From the NCBI RefSeq assembly GCF_023015985.1, contig NZ_JALKAO010000007.1:62001-126000 (forward strand): a DNA stretch of 64,000 nucleotides, read 5' to 3'. The position numbers and the translations under genes were made by a program. The notes beneath the pieces were generated by a model. It saw only the letters and a list, made by a program, of their open reading frames with translations, did no database searches and was not told the origin of the DNA. Positions 10,599 through 63,195 of the stretch are shown one piece after another. Each line of letters starts with the position of its first letter. Within the stretch, counting starts at the first letter, position 1. This DNA comes from Marivita sp. S6314 (GTDB lineage Bacteria > Pseudomonadota > Alphaproteobacteria > Rhodobacterales > Rhodobacteraceae).

Positions 10599-10611
10599 CT
10601 GGCCCCGCTTT

Positions 10612-41172: not shown

Positions 41173-42123
41173 TCATGGTGGGGCCACGCCGGTCACGGGC
41201 AGCGTGCTGACCACGTCCCAGACCGTCGCCTGCATCAGCTCTGCCAACGCATCGGACGGGGCATTGGCCCGACCGCCATCCGCACGCCGCAGTTGCGTCG
41301 GAAGCCCGACGGGAGAGCGGTGATAGAGCACAGCGTAATGCGTGAGAGCGACGAGATACGCCCCAAGATCGTTGATATGAATGTGGTCGAGCGTTCCGTC
41401 TTCAAGACGTGCAAACAGGTCTTCGCGCGATGACATGCCGTCAACACCGCCCATCGATTCAACGCGCCGCACCAGTTCGGCCATGACCCGGCCCGCCGGG
41501 ATCACGTAGATCGGTCGGGTGTCCGGATCCTGCGCCATCGCACGTGCGATCAGCACGCCTTCCCAATAGCGCTCGGGATCGGTGTCCAGACGGGCGAGCC
41601 ATCCTTGCGGATCGTTCAGATCGTGCCAGGATTCGTACAGGTACACGCGGATGTCAGGGCGACCGTCACGCGCTGCTGAGGCCCATTTGTTCAGGTAGAG
41701 CGGCGCCTCGAAGTACTCGATTGCTGCTTCGATTTCGACCATTTCGGTAAGCACAAAGGCGTCAAACGCACCGCTGGCCAGTGCCGTCTTGGCGTCCTGG
41801 TAATGGTCGTGGTCGTTTTCGGTCGCAAAGCCCTGAATTTCGATATCGGGCTCCCAATGCGCCTTAAGCGGGGTGCCCCAACCAAGTTGCGACGCGTGGG
41901 TGTGCCCGGCAAGCTGCGCCAACATCGCGGGCATGTCGCGGCCAACCAACGAATGGCCCAGATGGTATACCGACAACGGGCCGTCAGGCGGGGACAAGGG
42001 TGTCGCAAACGCCGCCGTGCGTTCGGCGACCGTCAGCGCTTTGGGGGGTTTCACGTAGATCCAGCCCGCAGCCCCAAGCGCAAGTATGGCGAGACCCGCC
42101 AAAAGGGATTTGGCCGAGATCAT
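41173..42123 (-). CDS. Membrane-anchored SGNH-like hydrolase candidate
   Basis: A 316-residue protein with an N-terminal membrane anchor or signal (LLAGLAILALGAAGWIYV). The segment YHLGHSLVGRDMPAML places Ser58 in a GHS context like block I of some SGNH hydrolases, and near residue 246 DHIHINDLGAYLVALTHYAVLY gives the D-x-x-H of block V. The middle contains WESWHDL-type residues in LYESWHDLNDPQGWL. SGNH proteins in polysaccharide loci act as esterases or acyl transferases. Its start overlaps the NRPS stop as TAATG, so it is translationally coupled to it. A tailoring or release role for the NRPS/PKS product or for an acylated sugar is inferred only from this. Confidence 0.65.
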   Translation of the reverse strand: MISAKSLLAGLAILALGAAGWIYVKPPKALTVAERTAAFATPLSPPDGPLSVYHLGHSLVGRDMPAMLAQLAGHTHASQLGWGTPLKAHWEPDIEIQGFATENDHDHYQDAKTALASGAFDAFVLTEMVEIEAAIEYFEAPLYLNKWASAARDGRPDIRVYLYESWHDLNDPQGWLARLDTDPERYWEGVLIARAMAQDPDTRPIYVIPAGRVMAELVRRVESMGGVDGMSSREDLFARLEDGTLDHIHINDLGAYLVALTHYAVLYHRSPVGLPTQLRRADGGRANAPSDALAELMQATVWDVVSTLPVTGVAPP

Positions 42124-45100
42124 TATGACGCCCGCCTGCGTGCGCGCATTTCGCGGCGGCGGGACATCGCGTTTGCCCGCTGCGTTGCCCGGTCGGACGC
42201 ATCCTGCGACGGCAGGCTGATCACGGTCGACGACCCCGCCCCGCGCGATAGGGCGTGCCCACCAAGTGTCGCAACGCGGTCGGACAAGGCCCCGAGGGTC
42301 GGGAACTGGAAGATGTCGGTGATCGACAGTTTCGCAATATCCAGACGGTCGCGCAAAGCGCGGTGCGTTTGCACGGCCAACAGGGAATGCCCGCCAAGAT
42401 CAAAGAAATTGTCCTCTGGCCTGATTTTGTCGACGCCAAGAACTTCGGTCCAAATGCCGGCAATTCGGGATTGCAGTTCGGCGTCCGCCTTGTGCCCATC
42501 GGCTGGCGCGACCACCTTGGTTGGCTTTGGCCGCGACACGGTTTTGGTGGGCGCAGGCAAGGCGCTGCGGTCGATTTTCTGATTTGGCGTGACCGGAAAC
42601 GCGTCAAGTGTCACGAAATGCGCCGGGATCATGTAGTCGGGCAACCGATCCGCCAGATGGGCGCGCAACGCTTGCGTGTCCGCATCGGTGCGGCTGGTGA
42701 TATACGCCACGAGACGCACATCGCCGGGGGCGTCCTCGCGGGCCAGAACCACGGCGTTCGTGACGCCGGAAAAGGACTGGAGCGCGCTTTCAATTTCGCC
42801 CAGTTCGATGCGGAAGCCACGCAGCTTGACCTGATGATCCGTGCGGCCCAGGAAGTTCAGCTTCCCATCCGGGCGACGCTGCACCAGATCGCCGGTGCGA
42901 TAGAGGCGTCCGGGGCCAAACGGGTTCGGGCGGTAACGGTCACGGGTCAGATCCGCGCGGTTCCAGTAGCCGCGCGTCACGCCGCCACCGCCAATCCACA
43001 ATTCGCCGTCTTCACCGATGGCCACGGGTTCAAGCGCATCGTCCAGAACGTAAAGCTGTGTATTGGCGATGGGGGTGCCGATATTGACGGTGGCCTCATC
43101 CGCCTGGGCGCGTTCGGTTGATGACCAGATCGTTGTTTCGGTCGGGCCGTACAAGTTGGTGATCGTCGCCTGTGTCGCCTGTTCAAGATCAGCGACCAAA
43201 GCGCCGGGCAGCGCTTCGCCGCCAAGAAACAGATGTTTGAGCCCTGTCAGCTGCGCGCGTGCGTCGTCATCCATCGCGATCATGCGGGCCATTGAGGGCG
43301 TGCATTGCATGTGGGTGACATTGTGGCGGGCCAGCATTGCCGCGATCGAGAAATCCTCGTCCTCGTGATCGCGCGACGGGGCGGATTGGCGCACCACCTC
43401 GGCCAGTGGTTTCAGGCCGTCGAGCACCTGATCTGTCTCGATGCCGTAGTCGATCAGGCAGGCGATTTCGGACACGCCGATGTTCTTGAGTTGATCGACC
43501 CGATTCAACGCATCCTCAATCGTGCCGAACAGGCCCGAGTCGTTGAAGTACCGCTCGAACGCGAAGTCCAGGATGCCTTCGAGATCGTCTTCGCTCAGAT
43601 CACCGAGGTTCAGTTCAAAGGCGTTTTTCACGCCTTCGGGCTTTTTGAAGGCCGGGAAGGCCCAGGCGTATTGTTTGATCAGGCCTGCGGCAGAGCGCAG
43701 ATAGTCTTTCATCGGCTCGCGCGCGATGTCCCGCGCCTCTTCGCGGGTGGAGGCCAGACAGGTGTGCAGCATAAGCGTGATGGTGAAGTCATCCGGGTTG
43801 TGCCCGGCATCCCGCAGCGCGTGGCGGTAAATCCCGATCTTCTCCGCCACTTCATCGACGGATTGCCCCAACAGGTGCGTCAGCACATTGGCCCCGTTTC
43901 GCCCCGCCTCGCGCCAGGTTTCGGGGTTGCCTGCGGTTGTCACCCAGATCGGAAGGTTCCGGGACACAGGACGCGGCTGCGTGACCACCTCGTGCATCTG
44001 GCCGTCTTTGCGCGGGAACGCGACGGGTTCGCCGCGCCAGAGTTTGCGCACCTGGTCGATGGCGTCGAACATGGCCGGTTTGTTGTCGGGTGGTGTGTTT
44101 TCCGGGCGCAGTACGAAATCATCCGGCTGCCAGCCGCTGGCGATAGCAAGACCTGCCCGGCCATTGGTCAGGTTGTCAATCACCGCCCATTCTTCGGCAA
44201 TGCGCGCGGGATGGTGCAGCGGAGCCACGCAACTGCCGGCACGCACGCCGATCTGGCTGGTGACCGCCGCCACTGCAGCGCCTGTGACCGACGGGTTCGG
44301 ATAGGGGCCGCCAAAGGCGTGGAAATGCCGTTCCGGGGTCCAGACCGCGCAAAAGCCGTTGGCATCGGCAAATTTCGCGCCTTCCAGAAGCAGGCGGTAT
44401 TTGTCACGGCCAACGCCGTCATCATTGCCCCAGTAATAGATCGAGAAGTCCATCCCATCAGAGCCGGTGCGCGCCGCCCCGCTGGAGATCACACCCCGTT
44501 GGCTGGTGCTTGGCAGGACAACCTTTATGCCGCGCGACAAGGTGTAGAACAGCTCCAGCACCGAGATATCGAAACTGAGGCTGGTCACCGCAAGCCAGGT
44601 CGCATCCTCCCTGTCAGGCACAATCGCATCCATGCCGACACAGAAATTGAGCACGTTGCCATGTTCGACCATCACCCCTTTGGGCACTCCGGTCGAGCCG
44701 GACGTGTAGATCACGTAAGCCAGATCCTCTGACGCGGTGGTCGGTTCCGGATTGGTGCTATCGGCCTGCGCCAGATGCGGGTCGTGATCCATGATCAGGG
44801 TTTTCGCGCCGGTTTCCGGCAGGTCGTCTTGTAGTGCGGATTGCGTGATCACAATCGGGGCCTGGCTGTCGGTCAGGTAGTGGTCCAACCGATCCCTGGG
44901 GTAGTCGGGATCCAGCGGCAGATACGCCCCACCGGCCTTGAGAATGCCCAGCGCTGCGGCAACCAGATCGGGGCCACGGGCGCAATGCAGGCCAACCATT
45001 ATGTTTGGCCCGACGCCCATATCGCGCAGCCTGTGCGCGACGCGATTGGCGTGTTCGTTCAAAGCGGCAAAGGTGATTTCGGAGCGTTCATGCACAAGCG

Positions 45101-46703
45101 CGATGGCATCTGGCGTTTGCACAACTTGGGCTTCAAAGGCCTGATGCAGGGTCTTGTGTGGCGCCGGGGCGTTTTGGGTTGCGTTGAAGCGTTCCAGCAC
45201 GTCCCGTCGTTCGCCGGGGGGCAGCGGATCGAGGGCGTCGGGCGTTTTGCCGTCGCCGATCTGGGAGGCCATCCAATGCACCCGATGGATGAGGATTTGC
45301 GCGAAATCCGGCGCGATGCGGCCGGTGTCGATATGGGCCACCACCGCGTTGTTCGAAAGTTCGAAGGTGATGGCGACATTCGGGATGGGGCCGACGCGGT
45401 CGGATATGCCCAGCGCCGGGGTGTGCAAGGGTGGCAGGTTCGGATCTCGCAGCGGCAGATCGGTTGCGAACCCGACCTGAATATCGGGACCGTCGCGGCG
45501 CAGATCCTCGGGCGACAGGGGCACCCATGGATTGATCACGCGGAACCCGTCATCGGGGGCGATCTGCGGGTTGGCGCAGGCCAGCACCGTGCCGGGCGCG
45601 TCAGACAATCGGTTTGCCAAAGCGGCAAGCGCCGCGCGCAGGTGCCGGGCGTCGATGGCGGTTTCGACACGATCCAGCGCGGGGGGGTTGGAGGTCAGGA
45701 ACGGCAGCGTGATGGGAACGGATGCGCCCAACACACCCCGCCAATAGGCGTCGCGGGGCGCGACGCGCTGTGCGGCGTCTGAAATTGTGGTGCGGTCCTG
45801 CGCCGAGAGTGTCGGCAACACCTGCCCTAGCGAGACATGCCGCGATGGATCAAGGGGGGACCGGTCGCTGGCCCTGATCCCCGTCAGTTTCAGGGCAGCG
45901 TCCGCGAAGGCCACGGTCAGCGAGTGATCATCCACGTCAATCACCGTGCCGGGCGCCGCGCTGCTGTCCAGTCGCTGGGCCTGACCGATGTGCAAAAGTT
46001 GCTGTCCCGTCCAGATCTTGGCGGTGCACAGCGGGTTCCAGTATGGCCCGTGGTCCAAGGCGCGCACCAGCCGTTCGGCGGTGTCCGCCGGTCCTTCAAG
46101 GTGCAAAAGCCCGTTGGCATCGGGGCGGTCGGCAAGCCCGTGATAGCTGCGACGGGAGGCGTCCTGCGGTTGGCGGTTGGGCAGACCATGTGTCAGTTCG
46201 GTCAGCAGATCCGGAAAGCTGGACAGCGCGGCCTCATAGCATTTTGTGTTCAGCGTCAGGGCCGTGTCGTCCCGGGTGATGTCGATGCTGCGCTGCACCA
46301 GAATGTCACCGGTATCAACGCCCTCTTCAATCAGGTGCCAGGTGATGCCATGACGGGACTCGCCTTCGAGCAGCGCCCATACGGGCGCATTCAGGCCCGC
46401 ATGTTTTGGCAGCGGTCCGTCATGGAAATTCACCGCGCCCTGCCGGCCGCATTTGATCACATCACTGGGCAAAATGTGCAGGTTGGCGATGCTCAGCACC
46501 CAATCCACCGACACCGTGCCCATGCGTGCGCCCAGATCGCGGCCATGGGGTTCAACACGAATACTGCGGGAGCTGGCCCATTTGGCAATTTCGGGATTTC
46601 CCGTCACCAGAACCGCAATGCGGTGACCCTGCGCCAGCAGCGTTTCCGCGCAGTGCTGCGTCAGGCTTTCGTCACCGATCAGGATGCTGTCAAATGCGGT
46701 CAT
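42123..46703 (-). CDS. NRPS: formyltransferase - degenerate C - A(Gly?) interrupted by luciferase-like monooxygenase - PCP
   Basis: A 1526-residue synthetase. Residues 1-200 are a formyltransferase domain with the catalytic Asn/His region VNFHDGPLPKHAGLNAP and Asp in EEGVDTGDIL; a formyl_trans C-type piece follows to about 290. Residues about 310-500 look like the second half of a condensation domain, without HHxxxDG. The adenylation domain runs from about 510 (YTSGSTGVPKG near 668; SFDISVLELF near 712). It is split by an FMN-type luciferase-like monooxygenase (about 750-1105, starting MDFSIYYWGNDDGVG), then resumes with NLYGPTETTIW near 1186. The PCP has DLGGHSLLAVQ near 1436. There is no thioesterase. 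Hand alignment gives the pocket code DILQFGLIWK, one change from the glycine code. The insertion site matches MtaG/MelG-type proteins. Confidence 0.93.
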   Translation of the reverse strand: MTAFDSILIGDESLTQHCAETLLAQGHRIAVLVTGNPEIAKWASSRSIRVEPHGRDLGARMGTVSVDWVLSIANLHILPSDVIKCGRQGAVNFHDGPLPKHAGLNAPVWALLEGESRHGITWHLIEEGVDTGDILVQRSIDITRDDTALTLNTKCYEAALSSFPDLLTELTHGLPNRQPQDASRRSYHGLADRPDANGLLHLEGPADTAERLVRALDHGPYWNPLCTAKIWTGQQLLHIGQAQRLDSSAAPGTVIDVDDHSLTVAFADAALKLTGIRASDRSPLDPSRHVSLGQVLPTLSAQDRTTISDAAQRVAPRDAYWRGVLGASVPITLPFLTSNPPALDRVETAIDARHLRAALAALANRLSDAPGTVLACANPQIAPDDGFRVINPWVPLSPEDLRRDGPDIQVGFATDLPLRDPNLPPLHTPALGISDRVGPIPNVAITFELSNNAVVAHIDTGRIAPDFAQILIHRVHWMASQIGDGKTPDALDPLPPGERRDVLERFNATQNAPAPHKTLHQAFEAQVVQTPDAIALVHERSEITFAALNEHANRVAHRLRDMGVGPNIMVGLHCARGPDLVAAALGILKAGGAYLPLDPDYPRDRLDHYLTDSQAPIVITQSALQDDLPETGAKTLIMDHDPHLAQADSTNPEPTTASEDLAYVIYTSGSTGVPKGVMVEHGNVLNFCVGMDAIVPDREDATWLAVTSLSFDISVLELFYTLSRGIKVVLPSTSQRGVISSGAARTGSDGMDFSIYYWGNDDGVGRDKYRLLLEGAKFADANGFCAVWTPERHFHAFGGPYPNPSVTGAAVAAVTSQIGVRAGSCVAPLHHPARIAEEWAVIDNLTNGRAGLAIASGWQPDDFVLRPENTPPDNKPAMFDAIDQVRKLWRGEPVAFPRKDGQMHEVVTQPRPVSRNLPIWVTTAGNPETWREAGRNGANVLTHLLGQSVDEVAEKIGIYRHALRDAGHNPDDFTITLMLHTCLASTREEARDIAREPMKDYLRSAAGLIKQYAWAFPAFKKPEGVKNAFELNLGDLSEDDLEGILDFAFERYFNDSGLFGTIEDALNRVDQLKNIGVSEIACLIDYGIETDQVLDGLKPLAEVVRQSAPSRDHEDEDFSIAAMLARHNVTHMQCTPSMARMIAMDDDARAQLTGLKHLFLGGEALPGALVADLEQATQATITNLYGPTETTIWSSTERAQADEATVNIGTPIANTQLYVLDDALEPVAIGEDGELWIGGGGVTRGYWNRADLTRDRYRPNPFGPGRLYRTGDLVQRRPDGKLNFLGRTDHQVKLRGFRIELGEIESALQSFSGVTNAVVLAREDAPGDVRLVAYITSRTDADTQALRAHLADRLPDYMIPAHFVTLDAFPVTPNQKIDRSALPAPTKTVSRPKPTKVVAPADGHKADAELQSRIAGIWTEVLGVDKIRPEDNFFDLGGHSLLAVQTHRALRDRLDIAKLSITDIFQFPTLGALSDRVATLGGHALSRGAGSSTVISLPSQDASDRATQRANAMSRRREMRARRRAS

Positions 46704-46706
46704 AAA

Positions 46707-47726
46707 TCACTCTGTCCTGGCCCGGAGATGCATCTCGGGCAGGTCCGTGTTGGTTTGGATGGATGTTTCCGGCGTGGGCCGGAACACCGCCTGAACGTCA
46801 TGGCGGATCAGATCGCGCAGGAACCGGTTCGCATTGGTGTTGGGTTTGCGTTCGATCCAGCGGCGGATGCGCCAGAGAGACGTGCCGATCACGTTCATGG
46901 AGGTGGCCGCAATTGCGTAAAGGCGGCCGTAATTCTTGCTGTAGTAGTACCAGCGGCTTTCGTACCAGTAGCGCGGCGTGCGTTTCCACGTGCCCATCCC
47001 CGTCGACACCGACCCGATATGGCAGACCTTGCTGGCGCGGACGAAGTGAACCTCGTAGCCCGCGCGGTGCGCGCGCAGACACAGGTCGGTTTCTTCGAAA
47101 TACAGAAAGAAGGTTTCGTCAAAGAGGCCGATTTCAGACAACACGTCCGTCCGAACCAGCATCGACGCCCCGACGATCCAGCCCACCGGGCCGGATGTTT
47201 CGGGCAGATGCAGCGGGACAACGTAGTTCTTGAGAAGCTTCGTGACGGGCCCGAACCGGATTGAGGCTTCGAATTCGGACGCGATCCCGGGAAAGCGGAA
47301 GGCGCTGCAATCATCATGGCCGTCCTGGTTGTAGATCCAGCTGCCTGCAATCGCCGCTTTGGGATGGGATGTCAGATGGTCGACAAGGGCCGCAATGGCG
47401 TTTTCCTCGACCTGCGCGTCGGGGTTGAGGATGTAAACAAACTCGGCCTTCGGGCAGATGGACCGCCCGGCACGAATGCCGAAATTGTTGCCCGCGCCGA
47501 AACCGCCGTTCCGTCCCGATTGCAGCACCTGAACGGTCAGATGGTCCGGCCACGACAGGCCCGCGACCGCGGTCTGCATGACGTCAAGCGAGTCGTCCGG
47601 GGAGTCGTTGTCCACAAGGAGGATCGCGCCGCCGAATCCCGTCATGGCAACCGCAGCCGATTGCGCAGCCTTGACCGCAAGATCCGGCGTTTTGTAATTC
47701 AAGATAACGACGACAATCTCTGTCAT
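46707..47726 (-). CDS. Family 2 glycosyltransferase (rhamnosyltransferase-like) between PKS and NRPS
   Basis: A 339-residue GT-A glycosyltransferase of the WbbL/rhamnosyltransferase type. It starts VVVILNYKTPDLAVKAAQSA, has the metal and donor loop YILNPDAQVEENAI, WIVGASMLVR, and the catalytic ETDLCLRAHRAGYEV. The start is ATG 47726 with GGAG nine bases before it; an earlier in-frame ATG (47756) would overlap the PKS end. Four bases separate it from the PKS stop and three from the NRPS start, so it is translated in the same operon. That position suggests it glycosylates the PKS/NRPS product or links it to a lipid or polysaccharide; this is inference. Confidence 0.9.
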   Translation of the reverse strand: MTEIVVVILNYKTPDLAVKAAQSAAVAMTGFGGAILLVDNDSPDDSLDVMQTAVAGLSWPDHLTVQVLQSGRNGGFGAGNNFGIRAGRSICPKAEFVYILNPDAQVEENAIAALVDHLTSHPKAAIAGSWIYNQDGHDDCSAFRFPGIASEFEASIRFGPVTKLLKNYVVPLHLPETSGPVGWIVGASMLVRTDVLSEIGLFDETFFLYFEETDLCLRAHRAGYEVHFVRASKVCHIGSVSTGMGTWKRTPRYWYESRWYYYSKNYGRLYAIAATSMNVIGTSLWRIRRWIERKPNTNANRFLRDLIRHDVQAVFRPTPETSIQTNTDLPEMHLRARTE

Positions 47727-47730
47727 GCAG

Positions 47731-50700
47731 CTACTCCGCAGCCTCAGTGGCTTCAAAATTTATGATCTGGCCTTTGCCCTGCACTGAAGCCTCGGTCGCG
47801 ACAATGACGTTGCGCAGATGGCTGGCAAGAACCCGCACATTTGGTTCCAGAACCATGCTGTCATGGTCGCCGGGCACTTCGAACACTTCGATCTGGGGGG
47901 TGTATTGGCCCCAATCGTTGTCGTCAAAAAGGTAGGCCCGTTCATGGTTGACCCACCGCCCGCCGGACACCTGCCAGGTGCCGATCAGGGGCGGCCGGAA
48001 CAGAACGATCCGGCCATCCCAGCCGTCCATGTTGTACGCGGACACCGCGTGCAGGAACGCCTGTTCGATCTCTTCGTTGTGGAAGCTGTGCGCGGTTTGT
48101 GTGCCTTCGCTTGGCTGGCGTTTCTGGATTTCCCAGGCAATGCGATTGCGGAGCCAGACAAACGGATACGACAGGCCTTTCTTGCGGGTTTCTTCCCATT
48201 GAATGAGCAAGCGGTCCTTGCGGCTGAGCGGGCGGCGCTGCGGCAGAGGGGTGTCGAGCAGGACAACCATCGCGACCTCGTCCCCCATGTCGCGCAGTTG
48301 ATGCGCGATTTCGTACGCCGTGATGCCGCCGCCAGAAAAGCCGCCGATGAAATAGGGGCCTTCAGGCTGCACCTGTTTCATCTCGGCAATGTAGTCGCGG
48401 GCGGCGTCCTTGATCGAGGTGTGCGGGGCTTCGTCACCGTAAAGACCCTTGGCCTGAAGGCCGAAGAACGGTCGGTCCCGGCCAATCAACTGCGCCAGAT
48501 GGCGCAGGTTGAGGACGTTGCCAAACATCCCGGCCACAAGGAAGAACGGCGTTTTGGATCCGCCCTCGCCGTCATGCATCGCTACCAGGTGCTTGAACCG
48601 GCGATTGCGCTTTTTCGGCTTTGGCGCGGTGCTTTCCGAGGGGTCCGAAATCTCGGCGCGGTCTTGGATCAGGGTCGCACAGGCACGGATGGTCGGGGCC
48701 TCGAACAGGATCGAGATCGGGAAATCCACGTTGTAGGTTTTGCGGATCTTGGCAAAGAGCCGCACCGCGATCAGGGAATGGCCACCAAGGTCAAAAAAGC
48801 TGTCCTCAACGCCCACATTCTGCACGCCAAGCAGGTCTTCCCAGATGTCGACCAGCGTGCGTTCAACTTCGGTTTCCGGCGCGGCGTAATCGCCATCGAG
48901 CTGCGGACGGTCGAATTTCTGAATATCCGACGCGCTGTCGGCTGTTGCGCCTGCCTGTGCAATCAGATCGTCAAGATCAAGCGACGACACGAAGACGTGC
49001 GGTTTGTTCTGACCAAGCGCCCGCCAAAACGCCTCTGCCCCGTCGCTGGGCGGTATGCCTTGTGTCAGGTTGTGCTGAAGCCGCTCTTCGGAGGAGGACA
49101 GCGGTTGGGTGGCGCGGCTGAAATCCCGCGGTTCGAATTCAGACCCGGTGACTTTGACCGGGGCGGTCAGGACCGATGGGTCGTCCAGTTGCTTGATCGA
49201 AAAGCCTTCGATCTCCATGCAGACGGTGCCGTCGGGGGCCGCCAGGGTGATGTCGAAGGACGCTGTCGCGTCTTCGTTGCGGTTGGGGCCTGCCGACCGG
49301 ACCCAGCTGACGATCCGGTCCGGAAAGCGATGACACACCCGCACAGAGGCATAGGAGACCGGAACCCAAAGCCTGTCCGAGCGGTAACCGTCGATCAGTT
49401 CCATCGCCCAGCCGGTCGCGATATCCAGAAGCGCCGGGTGGTAATGCCAGTCCTCGGGATGATCGGCTTCGGGGTTCAGCGACAGGTCTGCAATGCCTTC
49501 GCCGTCGCCGAACGCGCAGGTGTCCAGCACCTTCCAGTTGGGTCCAAAGGCCAGTTGGGTTTCCTGCGCCGCATCGAGTTTGCGCCCGTTCGACGCGGTA
49601 CACAGCGGGCCGCACCGAGCGCGGATGGCCTTGATATCAAGCTTGCGCGGCTGGGCTTCGGGGATCAGGGACAGGTTGGCGGTTGCCACGGGAGCGAACC
49701 CGTCGCGGCCCGAATGCGTGCAACTGCCCAAGGCTTCGAGCGCATATCCTTCGTCTTTCCGTTTCAGCCGGACGCGAATGTCGCGATGCCCGTCCTCGGG
49801 CACATTCAGCGGGCGAAGGAAGGTCATGTCATGTACGGCAAAGGCATCACCTTCGCCCTGCCCGCGCAACGCCTGGGACGCCAGTGTCAGGTATCCGGCA
49901 CCGGGGAACAGGGCGTCGCCCTGCTTGGTGCGATGCTCGTCGATAAACCAGTCCGTTGTCGCGTACCGGGCCTCAAAGATCCGGTGACCGGATGGATCGA
50001 ACCCGGTCTTGTGCAGAAGCGGCAGGTTGGCATCGGTCAAAGGCTGTGGATCGCCATCGCCCAACCGGTCTGCCAAGGCGTTGGCGGCCATGCCCACGTC
50101 CGACCAGATGCCCCAATTGATGGCGACCACATGGGTGGCGTCGCCCTTGCGGGATTTGGCATAGGCGTTGAGATATTCATTGGCCGCGACATAGTCGATC
50201 TGGCCAGCGGGGGCGGTTTGCGTCGATGTGGACGAAAACAGCGCGATAAAGTCCGTGGAGCCATCGGGGAACACCTGGTCCAGCACCTTGGTCCCGTGAA
50301 TCTTGGCCGAGAACACCTGTTCCACGGATGCGGTGGTTTTGGACAGGATCAACGCATCGTCCATCACGCCTGCCGCATGGATCACGCCGTCGATCCGACC
50401 CAATTCGCGCTGCGTGTTCTGCACCATGTCAGACATGTCGGTCAGGTTGCACACATCAAGCGCGCACATCCGAACGGTTGCCCCGAGGGCTTCAAGCTCT
50501 TGCACCGCGCGAATGCGTTTGACGGCCCGGTCCTGCGGCGCGTGCAGTTGCAGGTAGCGGTCCCAGACGTCGCGGTCTGGCAAGGGATCCCGCCCTGTCA
50601 GGATCAGGGTGCAGCCTTCGGCCGCCAGCGATCTGGCAATCGTCAACCCGATGCCGCCAAGACCCCCGGTGATGAGGTAGATGCCGCCAGGTTTGATCGC

Positions 50701-53700
50701 GAGGCGGACATCTTCGGACAAGAGGGTTTTCTGAAGCGCCTTTTCGAACCGTTTTCCGGACCGCACCGCAACGACGCAGGTGTGCGGGTCTGAAACGAGT
50801 TCTTCCAGCACCTGATCGGTCAGCCGGGTCAAACCGTCGTCGTAGTCAGCGCTTTTGGGAACGAACCAAAGCCAGGATTTTTCCGGTGGTTCTGGCACAT
50901 CAAGATCAACGGAGGACACCGTCAATCCCGGAACTTCGTGCGGGATGACGCGCGCGGGTCCGGCAAGAATGGCCTTTTCCGGCGTGTTCAGGACCTCATC
51001 ACCAACCGCAGCGGCATTGTTGGTAAAGACCGAGATATGGGTCGGTTTGGGCAGGGTTTCGTCCACAATCGCCTGCGCGATGAACATGAGCGAATAGAAG
51101 CCGTGTTCCTGCACGCGGTGGAAAAAGCTTGATCCCGGTCGGTGGCTTTTGTCCTTTGTCACCCCCCAGAAATGCGCGATGCGGCTTGGCACCAATCCGC
51201 GCGCCAGCATGTCGCGGAACAACAGGTCATACCCTTCGCGTCCGCGTTCCGGGGCGATGACATAGGTGGTGTCATCCAGCCGCGCATAGCTGTCGCCGGG
51301 CCAGACCTCGACCACGGCATGCCCGGCATCCCGCAAACGCGCGGCTGCGCCAGAGGCGATGCCGACATCATCCATGAACATCAGCCAGCTTTGCGGCTCT
51401 GCCGCGCCCAGGTCACGCGCCACATCCAGCGATGTGTCGGCGTATTTGGGACGCCAGGACGGCACCCATCCCCAGTTCTCGATCCCGTCCAGACGGGTCA
51501 GGAAATTCGTGGCTTCGTGCGTTTGTGGTTGGCCCGGTTCGATGAAGTAGCGGGACCGCTGGAACGCGTAGTTGGGCAATGGCACGCGATGGCGCTTTGC
51601 CTCGCCCCAGTACTGGCCCCAGTCAAAGTCACCGCCCAGCGCCCAGATCCGGCCCAGCACCTCAAGAAGGTAGCGATCATCTTCGACGTCTTCCTCGGGG
51701 TGGCGCAGGCTCGACAGAACCTGTTGCCCGGTGATCCCTTCACATTGCCGCGCGAGACCTGACAGGGCTTTTCCGGGCCCAACCTCAAGATAGATGCGGT
51801 TGAGTGCGTCGCTGAGCGTTTCAAGACACTGCGCAAACAGCACCGTCCCGCGCAGATGCGAGACCCAGTAATCGGGGCTGGTTGCCTGATCGTCGGTCAT
51901 CCACGTGCCGGTTGTATTGGACGTGATCGGCAGGCGTGGTGGGTGCAGGTCGATGGACGACAAATAGGTGCGGAACCGCTCCAAAATCGGGTCCAGCATG
52001 CGCGAATGCGCGGCGATGTCGATCTGGATGCGCTGGTAGTCGATATCGCGGGCGGTAAGATCGGCCTCAAGTTTCGCAAGCGCATCGGCAGGGCCAGAGG
52101 CGACGCTGAGGCTTGGACTGTTGACCGCGCCGAGATCAAGCTCTGGCCCGAGGAGCGGGCGCAAGTCCTGTTCCGGCAAGGCCACCGAAATCATGCCGCC
52201 TTTGTCCACCGTGTCAAACAAGGTGCCGCGCAGGTGAACAAGGCCGATGCAATCCTCGAACGACATGACGCCCGCCAGACAGGCGGCGGTGTTTTCCCCC
52301 ATGGAATGCCCGGCCACCGCAGCGGGCCGAATGCCCCAACTGATCCAGAGCTGCGCCAGCGCATATTCGACGATCATGATCAGCGGCAGTTGCAAAGACG
52401 GCGTGCGCAGCGCATCGGCTGCTTGCGATTCCGCATCCGCGTCCGGCATCCAAAGGGCGCGGATATCGCGATCTTCCAGCGTATCCAGATGCGCCAATCC
52501 GCGATCCATCCATTCGGCAAAGACCGGTTCCGTTTCGTACAGATCGCGCCCCATATTGACGTATTGCGCCCCGCCACCGGGGAACAGGAACACCGTATCC
52601 GGTTGCTGCAATGCGTCGTGCGAATGGACCCGGTGACCCGTTTTCTGTTCCAGCAGCTTGGCCGCTTCGACATGGTTTGACGCAACCACCACGCGCCGCT
52701 TGTCAAAGGCGCGCCGCCCTTGTTGCAGGGTCCAAGCGACATCGGCGAGCGGTTGATCGGTGTTGGCGCGCAGATGGGCGGCAAGCTGCGCCGTGTTGGC
52801 CTCGAGCGCCGCTTTGGTGCGGCCCGACACGGTCAGGATCTGGAACGGCCAGTCGCTGTCTTCGGACAACCCGCGATCCGGCGCTTCTTCGAGTACGACA
52901 TGGGCATTCGTGCCGCCGACACCAAGAGAGTTCACCCCGGCCCGTCTTGGGTGATCTGATTGTTCCCACTTGGTCAGACGGTCGTTGACGCGGAAAGGCG
53001 AGGTTTCGAAATTAATCGTCGGGTTCGGTTTTTCGAAGCCCAAGCTCGGGGGCATCTGCCGGTTGTGCAACGCCATTGACGCCTTGATCAGGCTGGCCAC
53101 GCCTGCGGCGGTATCAAGGTGGCCGATATTGGTTTTGACAGACCCGATGCGGCAATGCCCGATTGCATCGCTTGTTTCGGAAAACGCCTGCGTGAGGGCG
53201 GCAACCTCGATCGGGTCACCCAGGTAGGTGCCAGTGCCGTGGCATTCGACGTAATCAATGCTGTCGGCTGTGACGCCCGCGATGGCATGTGCCTCGGCGA
53301 TGGCGGTGGCCTGCCCGTCCACGGACGGGGCCAGATAACCGGCCTTGGCGGCACCGTCATTGTTCACCGCGCTGCCCTTGATCACGGCCCAGATGTGATC
53401 TCCGTCGGCAAGCGCATCCTCAAGCCGGCGCAGCACAACCGCACCGGCGCCAGAGCCGAAGACCGTGCCTTGCGCCCGGTGATCAAAGGCATGGCATTGC
53501 CCGTCAGGTGACAGGATTTCGTTCTCTTTGTAGAGATATCCGCGCCCCTGCGGCAGTTCGATGGTGACCCCACCGGCCAGCGCCATGTCGCATTCGCCAT
53601 TCAGCAGCGACTGACAGGCGTAATGGGTCGCCACCAGGGAGGTGGAGCAGGCCGTCTGAACGCTGATCGACGGGCCATCAAGATCGAAGATGTGGCTGAC

Positions 53701-54207
53701 CCGCGTGGTCAGGAAGTCCTTGTCATTGCCGGTATGCCGCAACAGGAACATCCCGGTGTTGTCGACCAGATCGGGGTTCGAACACAGGTTGAAATAGAAA
53801 TAGCTGCCCATCCCGCAGCCGCCGAAAACGCCGATGCGCCCGTCGACCCGTTCCGGCATGTGACCCGCGTTTTCCAACGCCTCCCACGCGCATTCCAGGA
53901 ACTTGCGGTGCTGCGGATCCATGATCGCCGCGTCTTTGGGTGACAATCCAAAGAACTCGGCATCGAAGTGATCGAACCCGTCAAGCGGTGCGGCAAAAGG
54001 GACGTAATCGCGGTGGCGCAACAGACCGGGCGGCACGCCTGCCGCGATCAGGTCGTCCTCGTCCAGACGCCGGATCGAAGACACCCCGTCGCGCAGGTTG
54101 CGCCAGTATTCTGCCAGAGTGGCCGCGCCGGGCAAATGCGCCGACATACCAACAATCGCAATGTCGCTCTCCGAAATCAAAGGAGACGCGGTTGCTTCGT
54201 GAACCAT
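47731..54207 (-). CDS. Type I polyketide synthase module: KS-AT-KR-DH-ACP-TE
   Basis: A 2158-residue cytosolic synthase. The ketosynthase has its cysteine in VQTACSTSL near residue 186 and histidines in VECHGTGTYLGDP and VKTNIGHLDTAA. The acyltransferase has GHSMGE near 636. A ketoreductase follows (ITGGLGGIGLTIARSLA near 1184; Ser/Tyr region FSSTSTQTAPAGQIDYVAAN). A dehydratase comes next (DEHRTKQGDALFPGAGYL near 1424 as HxxxGxxxxP; YHPALLDIATGW near 1592). The ACP serine is in DLGGHSLIAVRL near 1807, and the terminal thioesterase has GGFSGGG near 1957 and GDHDSM near 2112. The DH lies after the KR, the reverse of the usual order. No loading domain precedes the KS. It is the first gene of the PKS-GT2-NRPS-SGNH operon, with a weak GGAATAGG site before ATG 54207. 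Confidence 0.93.
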   Translation of the reverse strand: MVHEATASPLISESDIAIVGMSAHLPGAATLAEYWRNLRDGVSSIRRLDEDDLIAAGVPPGLLRHRDYVPFAAPLDGFDHFDAEFFGLSPKDAAIMDPQHRKFLECAWEALENAGHMPERVDGRIGVFGGCGMGSYFYFNLCSNPDLVDNTGMFLLRHTGNDKDFLTTRVSHIFDLDGPSISVQTACSTSLVATHYACQSLLNGECDMALAGGVTIELPQGRGYLYKENEILSPDGQCHAFDHRAQGTVFGSGAGAVVLRRLEDALADGDHIWAVIKGSAVNNDGAAKAGYLAPSVDGQATAIAEAHAIAGVTADSIDYVECHGTGTYLGDPIEVAALTQAFSETSDAIGHCRIGSVKTNIGHLDTAAGVASLIKASMALHNRQMPPSLGFEKPNPTINFETSPFRVNDRLTKWEQSDHPRRAGVNSLGVGGTNAHVVLEEAPDRGLSEDSDWPFQILTVSGRTKAALEANTAQLAAHLRANTDQPLADVAWTLQQGRRAFDKRRVVVASNHVEAAKLLEQKTGHRVHSHDALQQPDTVFLFPGGGAQYVNMGRDLYETEPVFAEWMDRGLAHLDTLEDRDIRALWMPDADAESQAADALRTPSLQLPLIMIVEYALAQLWISWGIRPAAVAGHSMGENTAACLAGVMSFEDCIGLVHLRGTLFDTVDKGGMISVALPEQDLRPLLGPELDLGAVNSPSLSVASGPADALAKLEADLTARDIDYQRIQIDIAAHSRMLDPILERFRTYLSSIDLHPPRLPITSNTTGTWMTDDQATSPDYWVSHLRGTVLFAQCLETLSDALNRIYLEVGPGKALSGLARQCEGITGQQVLSSLRHPEEDVEDDRYLLEVLGRIWALGGDFDWGQYWGEAKRHRVPLPNYAFQRSRYFIEPGQPQTHEATNFLTRLDGIENWGWVPSWRPKYADTSLDVARDLGAAEPQSWLMFMDDVGIASGAAARLRDAGHAVVEVWPGDSYARLDDTTYVIAPERGREGYDLLFRDMLARGLVPSRIAHFWGVTKDKSHRPGSSFFHRVQEHGFYSLMFIAQAIVDETLPKPTHISVFTNNAAAVGDEVLNTPEKAILAGPARVIPHEVPGLTVSSVDLDVPEPPEKSWLWFVPKSADYDDGLTRLTDQVLEELVSDPHTCVVAVRSGKRFEKALQKTLLSEDVRLAIKPGGIYLITGGLGGIGLTIARSLAAEGCTLILTGRDPLPDRDVWDRYLQLHAPQDRAVKRIRAVQELEALGATVRMCALDVCNLTDMSDMVQNTQRELGRIDGVIHAAGVMDDALILSKTTASVEQVFSAKIHGTKVLDQVFPDGSTDFIALFSSTSTQTAPAGQIDYVAANEYLNAYAKSRKGDATHVVAINWGIWSDVGMAANALADRLGDGDPQPLTDANLPLLHKTGFDPSGHRIFEARYATTDWFIDEHRTKQGDALFPGAGYLTLASQALRGQGEGDAFAVHDMTFLRPLNVPEDGHRDIRVRLKRKDEGYALEALGSCTHSGRDGFAPVATANLSLIPEAQPRKLDIKAIRARCGPLCTASNGRKLDAAQETQLAFGPNWKVLDTCAFGDGEGIADLSLNPEADHPEDWHYHPALLDIATGWAMELIDGYRSDRLWVPVSYASVRVCHRFPDRIVSWVRSAGPNRNEDATASFDITLAAPDGTVCMEIEGFSIKQLDDPSVLTAPVKVTGSEFEPRDFSRATQPLSSSEERLQHNLTQGIPPSDGAEAFWRALGQNKPHVFVSSLDLDDLIAQAGATADSASDIQKFDRPQLDGDYAAPETEVERTLVDIWEDLLGVQNVGVEDSFFDLGGHSLIAVRLFAKIRKTYNVDFPISILFEAPTIRACATLIQDRAEISDPSESTAPKPKKRNRRFKHLVAMHDGEGGSKTPFFLVAGMFGNVLNLRHLAQLIGRDRPFFGLQAKGLYGDEAPHTSIKDAARDYIAEMKQVQPEGPYFIGGFSGGGITAYEIAHQLRDMGDEVAMVVLLDTPLPQRRPLSRKDRLLIQWEETRKKGLSYPFVWLRNRIAWEIQKRQPSEGTQTAHSFHNEEIEQAFLHAVSAYNMDGWDGRIVLFRPPLIGTWQVSGGRWVNHERAYLFDDNDWGQYTPQIEVFEVPGDHDSMVLEPNVRVLASHLRNVIVATEASVQGKGQIINFEATEAAE

Positions 54208-54311
54208 ACTCGTACCTATTCCCTTGATGGAGGTAGTATCTCACAAATATGATGAAACTTGGGCGATTTTTTCGTTTCCGGTCGCGGTTTCCGATGCCCT
54301 TTGCGACAGCG

Positions 54312-55688
54312 CTACAGCGCCGCCAACTCTGTCACGGCCCCTGCGTTCAACCAGAGCGCACCGGTAATGATCAGGGCCCCGATAATGGCGTAGACAAGAT
54401 CGTGCTTGGGATCCCATGCCCCCACCTTACGCGCCAGCCAGACAACAAATGGGTACGCCGCCAGACCTGCAACACCTTGCCCCACCAAAGCCCCCACCAG
54501 CCCGGCCGTGACCAGCCCAATGTACAGACACCCCAAGGTCAGGATCGCGCGGGCTGCGGACAGCACAAAGAACCTGCGCGAATCCCCTGCCGCAAGCGCG
54601 GCCTGTTCGTAGGTCAGCACGATCATGTGCGGGATCTGCATGGCCGCGATCAGCACAACCACGGCCCCGGCCATTTCGTAGCGCGGATCGTAGAGCAACG
54701 TGATCAGGAACACCCCTGCCGCCGATACAAACCCGGTCAGGCCGACCATGGCACCGGTCAGCAGAAATCGCATTTTCTGCAGCTTGCGAAAGTTTTCGAC
54801 ACTCTCTGCCGGGGGGCGTTCGCGATAAAGCGGGATCAATACTTTGCGTGTCAGGACGCCACCCATCAAAAGCGGAAAGCTCGCCAGGAAGAAGCCGATG
54901 TTGTAGATGCCGAACTGATCGAGCGGGAGAAACTTGCTGAGAAACAGCTTGTCCCCCTGCATATAGAGAAAGCCGCAGATCGTGCTGAGAAAGATCCACT
55001 TTCCAAATCCGATCAATTCGCCCGCGGCTGCGCGTTCCCAACGAAACCGATTGCGGGCCCCCGGCAGAAACGTGCTGTACAGCACCAGCTGGATCAGCGC
55101 CCATGCGATCCCGCTGATCACCAGCGCCCAGACCGACTGCATGTACCAGGCCAGCCCGACGGCAATGGCGATCATGCCCGCCTGGCTGATCAATTCCAGC
55201 AGCGTGAGCCGCCCCAGCAACAGGTGGCGATTGGCGGTGTCCATGCGCGTCGGATTGAAGCCCGCGATCAGTAGGTTCAGACCGGCGAACGGTATGATCC
55301 ATGCCAGCAGCGGTTCTTCGTAAAACGCGGCAAGCGGCAGAGCCATACCGCAGGCAAACAACCAGAGCAGGGCACCGCGGATCACCTGGATCGTCCAGGC
55401 CGTATCCAGAAAGTCCTGATCGTCACCGCGCTTGGATTGCATGATCGACGGGCTGACACCAACATCCGAGAACATGGCCAAGCCTTGAAGGATCACCGCA
55501 ACGAGGGCCATCAATCCAAACGCTTCGGGAAACAAAAGGCGGGTCAGAATAAGGTTGGACCCCAACCGCAACGCCTGCGCCGCGACGTAGCCCCCCATCG
55601 TGAATGCCGAGCTGCGCATGAAGCGCGCGTTCAGCGATCCTCCGAGAAAGCGCGTTTTGAGCGCCTGTATCACCGGCCCCTGCTCCAT
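54312..55688 (-). CDS. Wzx-type oligosaccharide flippase
   Basis: Integral membrane protein of 458 residues with about twelve to fourteen hydrophobic segments, of the polysaccharide-transporter/flippase type (MOP superfamily) that moves lipid-linked oligosaccharides across the inner membrane. Characteristic stretches are SAFTMGGYVAAQALRLGSNL and LILTRLLFPEAFGLMALVAV at the start and GDKLFLSKFLPLDQFGIYNI in the middle. Its start lies 19 bases inside the end of the upstream GT2 gene, so the two are cotranscribed; the PKS follows 104 bases downstream on the same strand. The substrate is presumably the repeat unit assembled by the neighbouring glycosyltransferases, possibly carrying the PKS/NRPS-derived group. 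Confidence 0.92.
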   Translation of the reverse strand: MEQGPVIQALKTRFLGGSLNARFMRSSAFTMGGYVAAQALRLGSNLILTRLLFPEAFGLMALVAVILQGLAMFSDVGVSPSIMQSKRGDDQDFLDTAWTIQVIRGALLWLFACGMALPLAAFYEEPLLAWIIPFAGLNLLIAGFNPTRMDTANRHLLLGRLTLLELISQAGMIAIAVGLAWYMQSVWALVISGIAWALIQLVLYSTFLPGARNRFRWERAAAGELIGFGKWIFLSTICGFLYMQGDKLFLSKFLPLDQFGIYNIGFFLASFPLLMGGVLTRKVLIPLYRERPPAESVENFRKLQKMRFLLTGAMVGLTGFVSAAGVFLITLLYDPRYEMAGAVVVLIAAMQIPHMIVLTYEQAALAAGDSRRFFVLSAARAILTLGCLYIGLVTAGLVGALVGQGVAGLAAYPFVVWLARKVGAWDPKHDLVYAIIGALIITGALWLNAGAVTELAAL

Positions 55689-56599
55689 TCCGGGGTCTTG
55701 GCGGGCGACAGCCGGACAGCCAGCGCGACGCCGCTATAGGCGGCAAATCCCAGCGGATCCCGAAGCGCGAGCTTCAGCTTGTCCCGTGTCGGGAAACTTG
55801 GTTTGTCGTCGTTCTTCATCAGGTCCGGATACAGTTTGTGGATCTCGTCGACACCCGCATTTTGCCTGCGGCGCACCCGGACAAGATTGCGCCATCCCTC
55901 CACCAGAGGCCACCGATACGGTGCGTCAACCGCAACCCGTTCGTGCGGCGCAAAACTCAGTCGGACAAACGTATCGTCGGAAATGATGTCCGGAAACGCT
56001 CCCCATCGCAGCCGACCCGCAGCGTTGACGGCAAACAGGCCAGCGCCGGGCACGCCGGTTTTCATGAAAGGCACCTGCGCGTAGATGCGTGCATAGGCCC
56101 GGGTTATCCAGCTTGACGACGGCGCAAGTTCGAGCGTGCCACTGGCATAGCGCGCCTGCGGCACATCGAGCGCATGAAACAGATCGCTCAGAAGATCGCG
56201 GGTCAGTTCCACATCGGCATCAAGATACACCCGAATGGCCCCCCGCGCGATTGCGTCACCCGCGTTGAGCGCCCCCAGCTTGCCACCCTCGGGCCGATCC
56301 AGCACGCGCAGCGCCCATCCTTTTTCGGCAAACGCAGAGGTGTAGTCTAACGCTTTGGAGGTGGTTTGGTCGGTGCTGCCGTTCGAAATCACAAGGATTT
56401 CGACGGTCTCGGGCCGGGACCAGGCGCTGTTCAGAACCGTGTCGAGGCATGTCCCGATCAGGGCTTCCTCGTTCGAGGCGGGGATGAGCACGCTCATCGC
56501 GGGGAGGTGTGCCTCAGCTGAGTCAGAACCGGTGCGGGCCATGCGGGATCCGATATATACCTTGGGAACGTTTACTGTACGACGCCGTGCGGGTGCCAT
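55670..56599 (-). CDS. Family 2 glycosyltransferase
   Basis: GT-A glycosyltransferase of up to 309 residues. The catalytic fold begins at MSVLIPASNEEALIGTCLD (residue 35), so the preceding 34 residues may be partly untranslated; ATG 56542 (residue 20) and 56497 (residue 35) are alternatives. Motifs are ILVISNGSTDQTT, RVYLDADVELTRDLL (DxD) and FPDIISDDTFVRLSF with the catalytic acidic pair. A weakly hydrophobic stretch (FAAYSGVALAVRLS) ends the protein. Its 3' end overlaps the flippase start by 19 bases. Role: another transfer in the repeat unit or its modification. Confidence 0.9.
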   Translation of the reverse strand: MAPARRRTVNVPKVYIGSRMARTGSDSAEAHLPAMSVLIPASNEEALIGTCLDTVLNSAWSRPETVEILVISNGSTDQTTSKALDYTSAFAEKGWALRVLDRPEGGKLGALNAGDAIARGAIRVYLDADVELTRDLLSDLFHALDVPQARYASGTLELAPSSSWITRAYARIYAQVPFMKTGVPGAGLFAVNAAGRLRWGAFPDIISDDTFVRLSFAPHERVAVDAPYRWPLVEGWRNLVRVRRRQNAGVDEIHKLYPDLMKNDDKPSFPTRDKLKLALRDPLGFAAYSGVALAVRLSPAKTPEWSRGR

Positions 56600-58335: not shown

Positions 58336-58384
58336 CCTTAACTGATTAACACAGCCAGTTTCCAACATCTTCAAAGATCTGCGG

Positions 58385-60202: not shown

Positions 60203-60203
60203 A

Positions 60204-61061: not shown

Positions 61062-61083
61062 GTTACCCGATCCTGTTCACTGA

Positions 61084-63185: not shown

Positions 63186-63195
63186 TGTATTTCCC

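What the first reader, a model, noticed from the sequence alone, without database searches (positions are those of the whole stretch)
41173..56599. Small PKS-NRPS pathway built into a surface-polysaccharide locus
A near-gapless minus-strand operon PKS, GT2, NRPS, SGNH-like gene (gaps of 4, 3 and -1 bases) lies between the polysaccharide co-polymerase gene and a flippase/GT2 pair. Sequence shows the coupling directly. PKS/NRPS pathways and Wzx/Wzz polysaccharide pathways are each well known; their interleaving with a glycosyltransferase inside the synthetase operon is what stands out. Inference: the locus makes an amino-acid/polyketide group that is glycosylated or attached to an exported glycan, or a secreted glycosylated small molecule.
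Basis: partly seen in the sequence, partly recalled or inferred. Interest (0 to 1): 0.9.

Follow-up and report, generated by a model that had tools for sequence, protein, structure and literature searches.

The report
NRPS-PKS module inside exopolysaccharide loci
Many marine bacteria related to the window's organism carry a small antibiotic-style assembly line locked inside the genes that build and export their surface sugar polymer, so that polymer probably carries an unusual glycine-derived group.

Summary
The window (genus Marivita by its named relatives) has the near-gapless run PKS, GT2, NRPS-like, SGNH between Wzx/GT2 and Wzz/CpsD. The 'NRPS' is unusual: no condensation domain (none in the genome), but a formylating start module with a luciferase-like monooxygenase inserted in its adenylation domain, then a PCP. 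The pocket, kept in 23 of 23 relatives, reads as glycine. The PKS is one module, KS-AT-KR-DH-ACP-TE. In the 80 best named relatives PKS-GT2-NRPS occurs in order in 75, and at least two polysaccharide gene classes flank 74; 0 of 20 arbitrary windows hold any. The pair also sits by polysaccharide genes in Shinella, Aminobacter, Methylobacterium, Hydrogenophaga and Deinococcus. Best reading: it makes an N-formylglycine plus one-malonyl acyl unit for the polysaccharide repeat, perhaps glycosylated by the GT2; the chemistry is inferred. A cluster that is probably this one has been drawn as an orphan antiSMASH 'NRPS-like/type I PKS' cluster (PMC10608839), without a polysaccharide link in the passages seen. 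New variant of a known kind.

The parts
47731..54207 (-). Monomodular type I PKS, 2158 aa: KS 14-439 (54168-52891), AT 539-813 (52593-51769), KR 1175-1370 (50685-50098), DH 1396-1677 (50022-49177), ACP 1784-1846 (48858-48670), TE from 1889 (48543 onward)
   Evidence: Pfam; KS, AT, KR, DH (His, Asp) and ACP residues kept in 17 of 17 aligned proteins, TE triad in 16 of 17
46707..47726 (-). GT2 glycosyltransferase, 339 aa from ATG (ORF extends to TTG at 47756), rhamnosyltransferase-like
   Evidence: Pfam and NCBIfam (TIGR01556 below cut-off); alignment; start seen
42123..46703 (-). NRPS-like start module, 1526 aa: F 56-287 (46538-45843), A part 1 523-734 (45137-44502), LLM monooxygenase 753-1103 (44447-43395), A part 2 1105-1383 (43391-42555), PCP 1413-1477 (42467-42273)
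   Evidence: Pfam/NCBIfam; F triad, A pocket, PCP Ser in 23 of 23
45159..45371 (-). Short remnant of the C-terminal end of a condensation domain (about residues 445-515)
   Evidence: hhalign probability 82.9, E 9e-6 against a profile of three C domains; no HHxxxDG in 23 of 23
41173..42123 (-). SGNH-like protein, N-terminal hydrophobic helix (membrane anchor inferred); invariant GHSL Ser58 and Asp246/His249
   Evidence: Alignment; predicted fold and Foldseek match to DUF4886 / GDSL esterases
54312..55688 (-). Wzx-type flippase
   Evidence: PF13440, PF01943; just upstream of the PKS in 29 of 78 named loci with a PKS
55670..56599 (-). GT2 glycosyltransferase beside the flippase
   Evidence: PF00535
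39683..41017 (-). Wzz-type polysaccharide co-polymerase
   Evidence: PF02706; TIGR03007 below cut-off
38505..39689 (+). CpsD-like polysaccharide tyrosine kinase
   Evidence: TIGR03018, TIGR01007 hits below cut-off
36248..38356 (+). Fused Gfo/Idh/MocA plus NAD-dependent epimerase
   Evidence: PF01408 + PF01370
34015..36236 (+). GT4 (34015-35271) and GT2 (35268-36236) glycosyltransferases
   Evidence: Pfam
31968..34018 (+). Gfo/Idh/MocA oxidoreductase and NAD-dependent epimerase, start codons uncertain (ORFs overlap)
   Evidence: Pfam
30921..32372 (-). WecG/TagA/CpsF glycosyltransferase (domain at residues 284-453 of the long ORF; true start probably further in)
   Evidence: PF03808

Best explanation
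The four genes are a conserved side-module of a Wzx/Wzy-type exopolysaccharide pathway. Proposed steps: (1) the adenylation domain loads glycine on the PCP; (2) the formyltransferase domain formylates its nitrogen; (3) the embedded luciferase-like monooxygenase oxidises it, probably at the alpha carbon; (4) the PCP hands the unit to the KS of the PKS, which adds one malonyl unit; (5) KR and perhaps DH reduce it, giving a 4-formamido-3-hydroxybutanoyl-type acyl (or its dehydrated or hydroxylated relative) on the ACP; (6) the TE moves it to a sugar of the lipid-linked repeat unit; (7) the operon's GT2 adds the next sugar, possibly on a hydroxyl of that acyl; (8) Wzx, Wzy, Wzz and CpsD export and polymerise; (9) the anchored SGNH protein trims or moves acyl groups outside the cytoplasm. 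Shown by sequence: domain order, intact catalytic residues, pairing and locus context. Inferred: every chemical step, the acceptor, and the roles of GT2 and SGNH.
For: Domains. F triad N92/H94/D130, PCP Ser and pocket DILQ(F/M/Y/L)G(M/L/F)(I/V)WK in 23 of 23. The pocket stretch matches best 5u89 (recalled: DhbF, glycine). The best whole-protein match is linear gramicidin synthetase A, which carries an F domain; its second A domain (recalled: glycine) scores above its first in the C-terminal half and in the A4 region. The monooxygenase is closest to PuwE (6ket, 335 bits). One-module PKS with KS/AT/KR/DH/ACP residues in 17 of 17 and TE in 16 of 17; in Deinococcus a condensation domain replaces the TE. 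Colibactin KS domains are sixth and seventh of the solved KS matches. NRPS precedes PKS in Methylobacterium and Deinococcus, matching the proposed order. Pairing: of the 18 best PKS places in plasmids, 16 lie next to an NRPS match covering at least 85% of the query, 1 next to a broken one (11 pieces, 72%), 1 next to a remnant. PKS and NRPS distances correlate 0.84 over 74 loci. Locus context: 74 of 80 against 0 of 20. The two locus types change once on each tree. The window genome has only this PKS and no other PCP beyond two ACP-sized ORFs.
Against: No chemistry or mutant data. The DH has a glycine where Q/H usually follows the catalytic Asp (usual motif recalled), so dehydration is doubtful. 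No Sfp gene lies in the window operon; two PF01648 genes lie on other contigs. No dedicated acyltransferase was found; the transfer is assigned to the TE by default. GT2 was not found in L131 and lies elsewhere in the locus in L154 and L156; Shinella has it apart and none was recognised beside the Aminobacter pair. Related F-A(MOX)-PCP plus PKS pairs stand without recognised polysaccharide genes in the 20 kb taken from G430 and beside nos genes in Aliiroseovarius M344, with GT2 and XrtD genes 14-19 kb off. L121, L069 and L082 (short contigs) and L095 show no class. The class references came from neighbourhoods of the same operon, and the 80 loci are the best-scoring of 589, so neither sample is neutral. 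Distances of PKS and NRPS also correlate with flippase and CpsD (0.55 to 0.71), as shared descent alone would give.
Confidence: 0.55

Rival explanations
1. The pair makes a free, secreted small molecule (glycosylated by the GT2) that merely shares regulation or export with the polysaccharide genes.
For: F-A(MOX)-PCP/PKS relatives occur without recognised polysaccharide genes in the stretch fetched from G430 and beside nos genes in Aliiroseovarius M344; the PKS ends in a thioesterase that could release a free acid. Annotation tools file such clusters as secondary metabolism (PMC10608839, passages).
Against: Among labelled genes of the 80 loci no transporter, regulator or resistance gene recurs, whereas Wzx/Wzy/Wzz/CpsD/WecG genes do; but 155 of 1039 chosen ORFs are unlabelled and the labels come from a small reference set. 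Locus types stay put on the tree.
Confidence: 0.2
2. The PKS makes a longer acyl chain that anchors the polymer in the outer membrane, as might be thought from capsule PKSs of the RkpA/WcbR type.
For: Type I PKS genes (wcbR/rkpA) sit in capsule clusters (PMC3908369, passages).
Against: One extension module without ER, paired with an aminoacyl-PCP module in nearly every relative examined, does not suit a saturated lipid; the loci look Wzx/Wzy-dependent. Not compared by sequence with RkpA or WcbR here.
Confidence: 0.1
3. The monooxygenase fragments the hydroxylated glycine, as recalled for the myxothiazol MtaG module, so the start unit is an oxo-acyl or amide-derived unit rather than an intact formamido group.
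For: Same recalled placement of the monooxygenase inside a glycine A domain; the insertion lies after the A4-type motif and before the YGPTE motif; relative of PuwE.
Against: A formyl cap would then be lost as formamide, which makes the invariant F triad (23 of 23) hard to explain.
Confidence: 0.1
4. The neighbourhood is incidental hitchhiking of a biosynthetic cluster in a variable region.
For: No NRPS match in 4 of 17 genomes of the genus (in two of these the contig ends beside the place where it would lie), and the pair is found on plasmids.
Against: Same order and context over many genera and in two phyla; 0 of 20 arbitrary windows hold any polysaccharide class.
Confidence: 0.05

Closest known systems
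[quoted passage not shown]
   Same: A cluster called by antiSMASH and shown as syntenic in four genera, one of them Aquicoccus porphyridii, in which I find the module (L102); probably the same cluster
   Different: The figure itself was not seen and the loci were not matched by tag; in the passages it is secondary metabolism, and the words exopolysaccharide and flippase do not occur in the text
PKS/NRPS genes of Phaeobacter inhibens (PMC4062626, passages)
   Same: A PKS (Inhi_1972) and an NRPS (Inhi_1974) two tags apart, the spacing expected for PKS-GT2-NRPS
   Different: Identity with this module not tested; no polysaccharide link stated in the passages
Linear gramicidin synthetase LgrA initiation module (F-A-PCP)
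   Same: N-terminal formyltransferase with N-H-D triad, then A and PCP; best PDB match of the whole protein
   Different: Here a monooxygenase interrupts the A domain, the F domain scores higher with ArnA than with LgrA, the pocket reads glycine, and a PKS is the expected next module instead of a C domain
Embedded luciferase-like monooxygenase domains (TIGR04020; PuwE; MtaG/MelG recalled)
   Same: Over the TIGR04020 cut-off (474 against 244 bits), nearest solved relative PuwE, inserted in a glycine-type A domain
   Different: Found in a formylating start module inside a polysaccharide locus; product unknown
RkpA/WcbR capsule PKS
   Same: Single type I PKS encoded inside capsule gene clusters (PMC3908369, passages)
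   Different: No NRPS partner is mentioned in the passages seen; here a formylating glycine module, GT2 and TE travel with the PKS in Wzx/Wzy-type loci
Acyl and aminoacyl groups of bacterial O-antigens (3-hydroxybutanoyl, 3,5-dihydroxyhexanoyl, N-acetylglycyl, linking hydroxyglutarate)
   Same: Show that hydroxyacyl and aminoacyl groups occur on surface glycans and can lie in the chain (PMC3210612, passages)
   Different: No NRPS-PKS source is described in the passages seen (the word polyketide does not occur in the text); organisms differ
Pks13 (recalled: its TE transfers the acyl chain to trehalose)
   Same: PKS thioesterase as sugar acyltransferase is the model for step 6; Pks13 TE is among the best solved TE matches
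   Different: Lipid product, no NRPS partner, other domain order (recalled)

Membership tests
Modular NRPS | Condensation domain with HHxxxDG | tested here: not met
   No PF00668 hit in the protein or in the genome; no HHxxxDG in 23 of 23; only a C-terminal remnant
Modular NRPS | Adenylation domain plus PCP with GGxS | tested here: met
LgrA-type formylating start module | N-terminal formyltransferase with N, H, D catalytic residues before A-PCP | tested here: met
   N92/H94/D130 in 23 of 23 (triad recalled); LgrA F domain aligns at residues 64-180
LgrA-type formylating start module | Formylates the PCP-bound amino acid | not testable with these tools
   Needs enzyme assay
Glycine-activating A domain | Specificity pocket DILQLGLIWK-like (code recalled) | tested here: met
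   DILQ(F/M/Y/L)G(M/L/F)(I/V)WK in 23 of 23; nearest solved pocket 5u89 (its glycine specificity is recalled)
TIGR04020 MupA/Atu3671 monooxygenase | Score above curated cut-off | tested here: met
   474 against 244 bits; over the cut-off in 41 of 147 genomes searched
Type I cis-AT PKS module | KS C-H-H, AT GHSxG, KR, ACP Ser | tested here: met
   17 of 17
Type I cis-AT PKS module | Working DH | tested here: inconclusive
   His1425 and Asp1595 in 17 of 17, but Gly where Q/H is usual and one extra residue in the HxxxGxxxxP motif (usual motifs recalled)
Wzx/Wzy exopolysaccharide locus | Wzx, Wzz/CpsD, glycosyltransferases together | tested here: met
Wzx/Wzy exopolysaccharide locus | Initiating transferase and polymerase | tested here: inconclusive
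   PF02397 39 kb beyond the window on the same contig and on contig C22; weak Wzy_C hits below cut-off on C22 and C36; in 25 of 78 named loci with a PKS a gene like L036:10780-12240, itself a below-cut-off Wzy_C hit, lies just upstream of it
RkpA/WcbR capsule PKS | Sequence clade of RkpA/WcbR KS domains | not tested
   No RkpA or WcbR sequence was compared
SGNH/GDSL hydrolase | Fold, block-I Ser, DxxH motif | tested here: met
   Foldseek DUF4886 E 1.2e-5 (TM 0.49/0.59, the only hit under 0.001), many GDSL/carbohydrate esterases after it; Ser58, Asp246, His249 invariant in 13 of 13; activity not tested

The most novel reading that the evidence does not exclude
An exopolysaccharide class of many Rhodobacterales whose backbone is not sugar alone: each repeat carries a formamido-hydroxy acid made by a two-protein NRPS-PKS line, and the operon's GT2 glycosylates that acid, so the assembly-line product becomes a link of the polymer chain.
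Probability: 0.3. Interest if true: 0.87.

Novelty: new variant of a known kind. Interest (0 to 1): 0.68.

Why it matters
If true, a widespread group of marine bacteria builds surface polymer from an assembly-line product, joining two fields usually annotated apart. It would give a function to hybrid clusters that genome mining now lists as orphan secondary metabolism (one such listing: PMC10608839), and it predicts a new glycan building block with formyl and hydroxyl groups. The claim is directly testable by NMR of a purified polymer.

Tried and rejected
Ordinary NRPS reading rejected: no condensation domain. SGNH as a fixed part of the unit rejected: 37 of 80 loci. An empty-site comparison in Marivita was weak: in L218 and L220 the contig ends at or near the edge of the missing block; L219 lacks the whole block with a truncated epimerase, but is one draft genome. 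Planktothrix PKS and Nostoc A-MOX protein sit in other kinds of clusters; the Vibrio stretch has no annotated feature. G300, G390 and G389 carry the monooxygenase domain in other synthetases. AT specificity (GHSMGE, IAAHS) could not be assigned. First Mantel runs with flippase and CpsD fragments gave undefined values and were repeated with length cut-offs. In the reference set two genes cut by a locus edge were translated out of frame (a dehydratase of L035 and the Wza of L038), so Wza was sought with one sequence only. Paper searches: searches found nothing; others returned listings (50, 51, 57 and 77 showed only part of their hits), of which I saw titles and the starts of abstracts. Passages were read of six papers: PMC3908369, PMC8739492, PMC5563371, PMC3210612, PMC10608839 and PMC4062626. 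The last two, opened only when checking this report, show that the cluster or its kind is already in print as secondary metabolism; I lowered the interest slightly for that (0.72 to 0.68) and dropped the statement that no description was found. Only openly licensed papers are held, so absence of the polysaccharide link from print is not shown.

Full report
WHAT IS THERE. The reported genes exist at the stated coordinates, and the gaps of 4, 3 and -1 bases hold if the GT2 starts at its ATG at 47726 rather than at the upstream TTG. Around them lie a Wzx-type flippase, Wzz, a CpsD-like kinase, several glycosyltransferases, sugar oxidoreductases/epimerases and a WecG/TagA gene, and then flagellar genes. 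Two genomes of the same genus have contig lengths equal to those of Marivita geojedonensis and M. lacus, which places the window in Marivita.

THE SO-CALLED NRPS. Pfam and NCBIfam read it as formyltransferase, adenylation domain split by a luciferase-like monooxygenase (TIGR04020, 474 bits against a cut-off of 244), and PCP. There is no condensation domain in it or in the genome; residues about 445-515 match the last 70 columns of condensation domains (hhalign probability 82.9, E 9e-6), so a remnant stays. In 23 of 23 aligned proteins the formyltransferase triad, the PCP serine and the adenylation pocket DILQ(F/M/Y/L)G(M/L/F)(I/V)WK are kept. That code is, from memory, the glycine code; the closest solved pocket is 5u89, recalled as glycine-activating DhbF. 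The monooxygenase is nearest PuwE.

THE PKS. One module, KS-AT-KR-DH-ACP-TE, with KR before DH. KS, AT, KR, DH (His, Asp) and ACP residues are kept in 17 of 17 aligned proteins, the TE triad in 16 of 17; the exception, Deinococcus, ends in a condensation domain instead. The DH second motif has Gly where Q/H is usual, so its activity is open. The five best solved KS matches bear only general PKS names; sixth and seventh are colibactin ClbK and ClbC, eighth and ninth are named hybrid NRPS/PKS and NRPS/PKS protein.

CONSERVATION. A scan of species genomes with the NRPS alignment kept the 80 best of 589 relatives. A PKS, whole or cut by a contig end, is present in 78 of 80. By ORF calling, PKS-GT2-NRPS in order on one strand is found in 66 of 80, with median gaps of -4 bases; of 12 loci re-examined by tblastn 9 have the GT2 in place, so 75 of 80. 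The other five: L131 no GT2 found, L154 and L156 GT2 elsewhere in the locus, L150 contig starts at the NRPS, L160 no PKS seen. Sfp genes are present in 60 of 80 and SGNH-like genes in 37 of 80. Within the genus, 13 of 17 genomes hold the NRPS, one of them split over two contigs. In plasmids, of the 18 best PKS places, 16 adjoin an NRPS match covering at least 85% of the query, one (Paracoccus marcusii NZ_CP143307) adjoins one broken into 11 pieces (72%), and one (Tateyamaria) a 287-aa remnant.

CONTEXT. Counting eight polysaccharide gene classes by BLAST against annotated neighbours, at least two occur in 74 of 80 named loci and 37 of 40 unnamed ones; none of 20 arbitrary 20-kb windows from the same relatives holds any. 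Without glycosyltransferases, at least two classes occur in 69 of 80 and at least one in 77 of 80. Caveats: the class references come from neighbourhoods of this same operon, the 80 loci are the best-scoring ones, the 80 and 40 overlap, and 155 of 1039 chosen ORFs stayed unlabelled. Loci with at most one class: L095, L121, L147, L148, L151, L160 of 80, and L061, L069, L082 of 40; L121, L069 and L082 are short contigs. Two arrangements dominate among the 78 loci with a PKS: Wzx just upstream (29) or a Wzy_C-like gene just upstream (25). These two labels change once on the PKS tree (54 labelled of 74 rows) and once on the NRPS tree (55 labelled of 81 rows), so the module stays with its kind of locus. 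PKS and NRPS distances correlate at 0.84 over 74 loci, more than either does with flippase or CpsD (0.55 to 0.71), though shared descent gives correlation too. Outside Rhodobacterales the pair lies by polysaccharide genes in Shinella, Aminobacter, Deinococcus, Methylobacterium and Hydrogenophaga (by BLAST labels, some weak). Against: Aliiroseovarius M344 has the NRPS beside nos genes and a larger partner, with GT2 and XrtD genes farther off, and G430 shows no recognised polysaccharide gene in the 20 kb taken.

OTHER PARTS. The GT2 keeps LN(S/P)DA- and FLYFEETD-type motifs in most of 17 aligned proteins and has no solved relative at E 0.001. The SGNH protein is predicted at pLDDT 92.7; its best match is a DUF4886 protein, with GDSL and carbohydrate esterases following at weaker E-values. 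The window genome has two PF01648 phosphopantetheinyl-transferase genes on other contigs and no second PKS.

MECHANISM. The simplest chain consistent with the parts is: glycine, formylation, oxidation by the embedded monooxygenase, one malonyl extension, keto reduction, transfer by the TE to a sugar of the repeat unit, glycosylation by the GT2, then Wzx/Wzy export. Gene order NRPS then PKS in Methylobacterium and Deinococcus agrees with that order of reaction. Every chemical step is inferred. Alpha-hydroxylation rests on recalled MtaG and PuwE work and on the palmerolide paper, which links a luciferase-like domain to an alpha-hydroxyl (PMC8739492, passages).

KNOWN OR NEW. Three things are in print. 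Capsule loci with a single type I PKS (wcbR/rkpA; PMC3908369, passages). O-antigens with hydroxyacyl or aminoacyl groups, even a hydroxy acid as a link (PMC3210612, passages). [quoted passage not shown] my locus L102 is Aquicoccus porphyridii, so this is probably the same cluster, though I did not match the tags or see the figure. That text does not contain the words exopolysaccharide or flippase. Phaeobacter inhibens has a PKS and an NRPS two tags apart (PMC4062626, passages), not tested for identity. So the genes are not new to print; what I did not meet, in searches of openly licensed papers and the passages named, is their reading as a formylating, glycine-type start module plus PKS fixed inside exopolysaccharide loci. 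I rate it a new variant of a known kind.

Noticed in passing
L219 (G002:C100:20000-39999), 8344-13687: In one same-genus draft genome the flagellar genes run straight into a truncated epimerase; Wzz, CpsD, NRPS, PKS and Wzx are all missing together.
   Followed up: partly
L223 and L227, Tateyamaria omphalii plasmid pDOK1-4-6: A 52-kb plasmid carries the PKS, a 287-aa NRPS remnant, Sfp, flippase, Wzz, WecB and exosortase genes.
   Followed up: partly
NZ_CP143307.1 248005-252426: In Paracoccus marcusii the NRPS is found in 11 pieces over short genes, i.e. decayed or badly sequenced.
   Followed up: no
L043 21327-27989: The Deinococcus plasmid version of the PKS ends in a condensation domain instead of a thioesterase, and a FemAB/GNAT-like gene lies upstream of the pair.
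   Followed up: partly
L106 16607-22612: Hydrogenophaga pseudoflava has the module plus a second synthetase with two AMP-binding and two PCP domains, a condensation domain and a TE, pointing to transfer between classes and a larger product.
   Followed up: partly
L074 1488-4052 and similar places in other loci: The second locus type often has an additional protein of about 840 aa, weakly like the SGNH protein; the one tested has no Pfam hit.
   Followed up: no
window 56641-63984: Flagellar genes (MotA, FlgI, FlgK-like) adjoin the polysaccharide locus, with two genes without Pfam hits (588 and 605 aa) between.
   Followed up: no
L037 26839-27625: In Ruegeria sp. SCSIO 43209 the gene at the SGNH place is very short and a transposase gene follows.
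   Followed up: no
Phaeobacter inhibens T5 Inhi_1972 and Inhi_1974 (paper PMC4062626): A PKS and an NRPS two locus tags apart in a well-studied marine strain; could be the same module and an easy test case.
   Followed up: no
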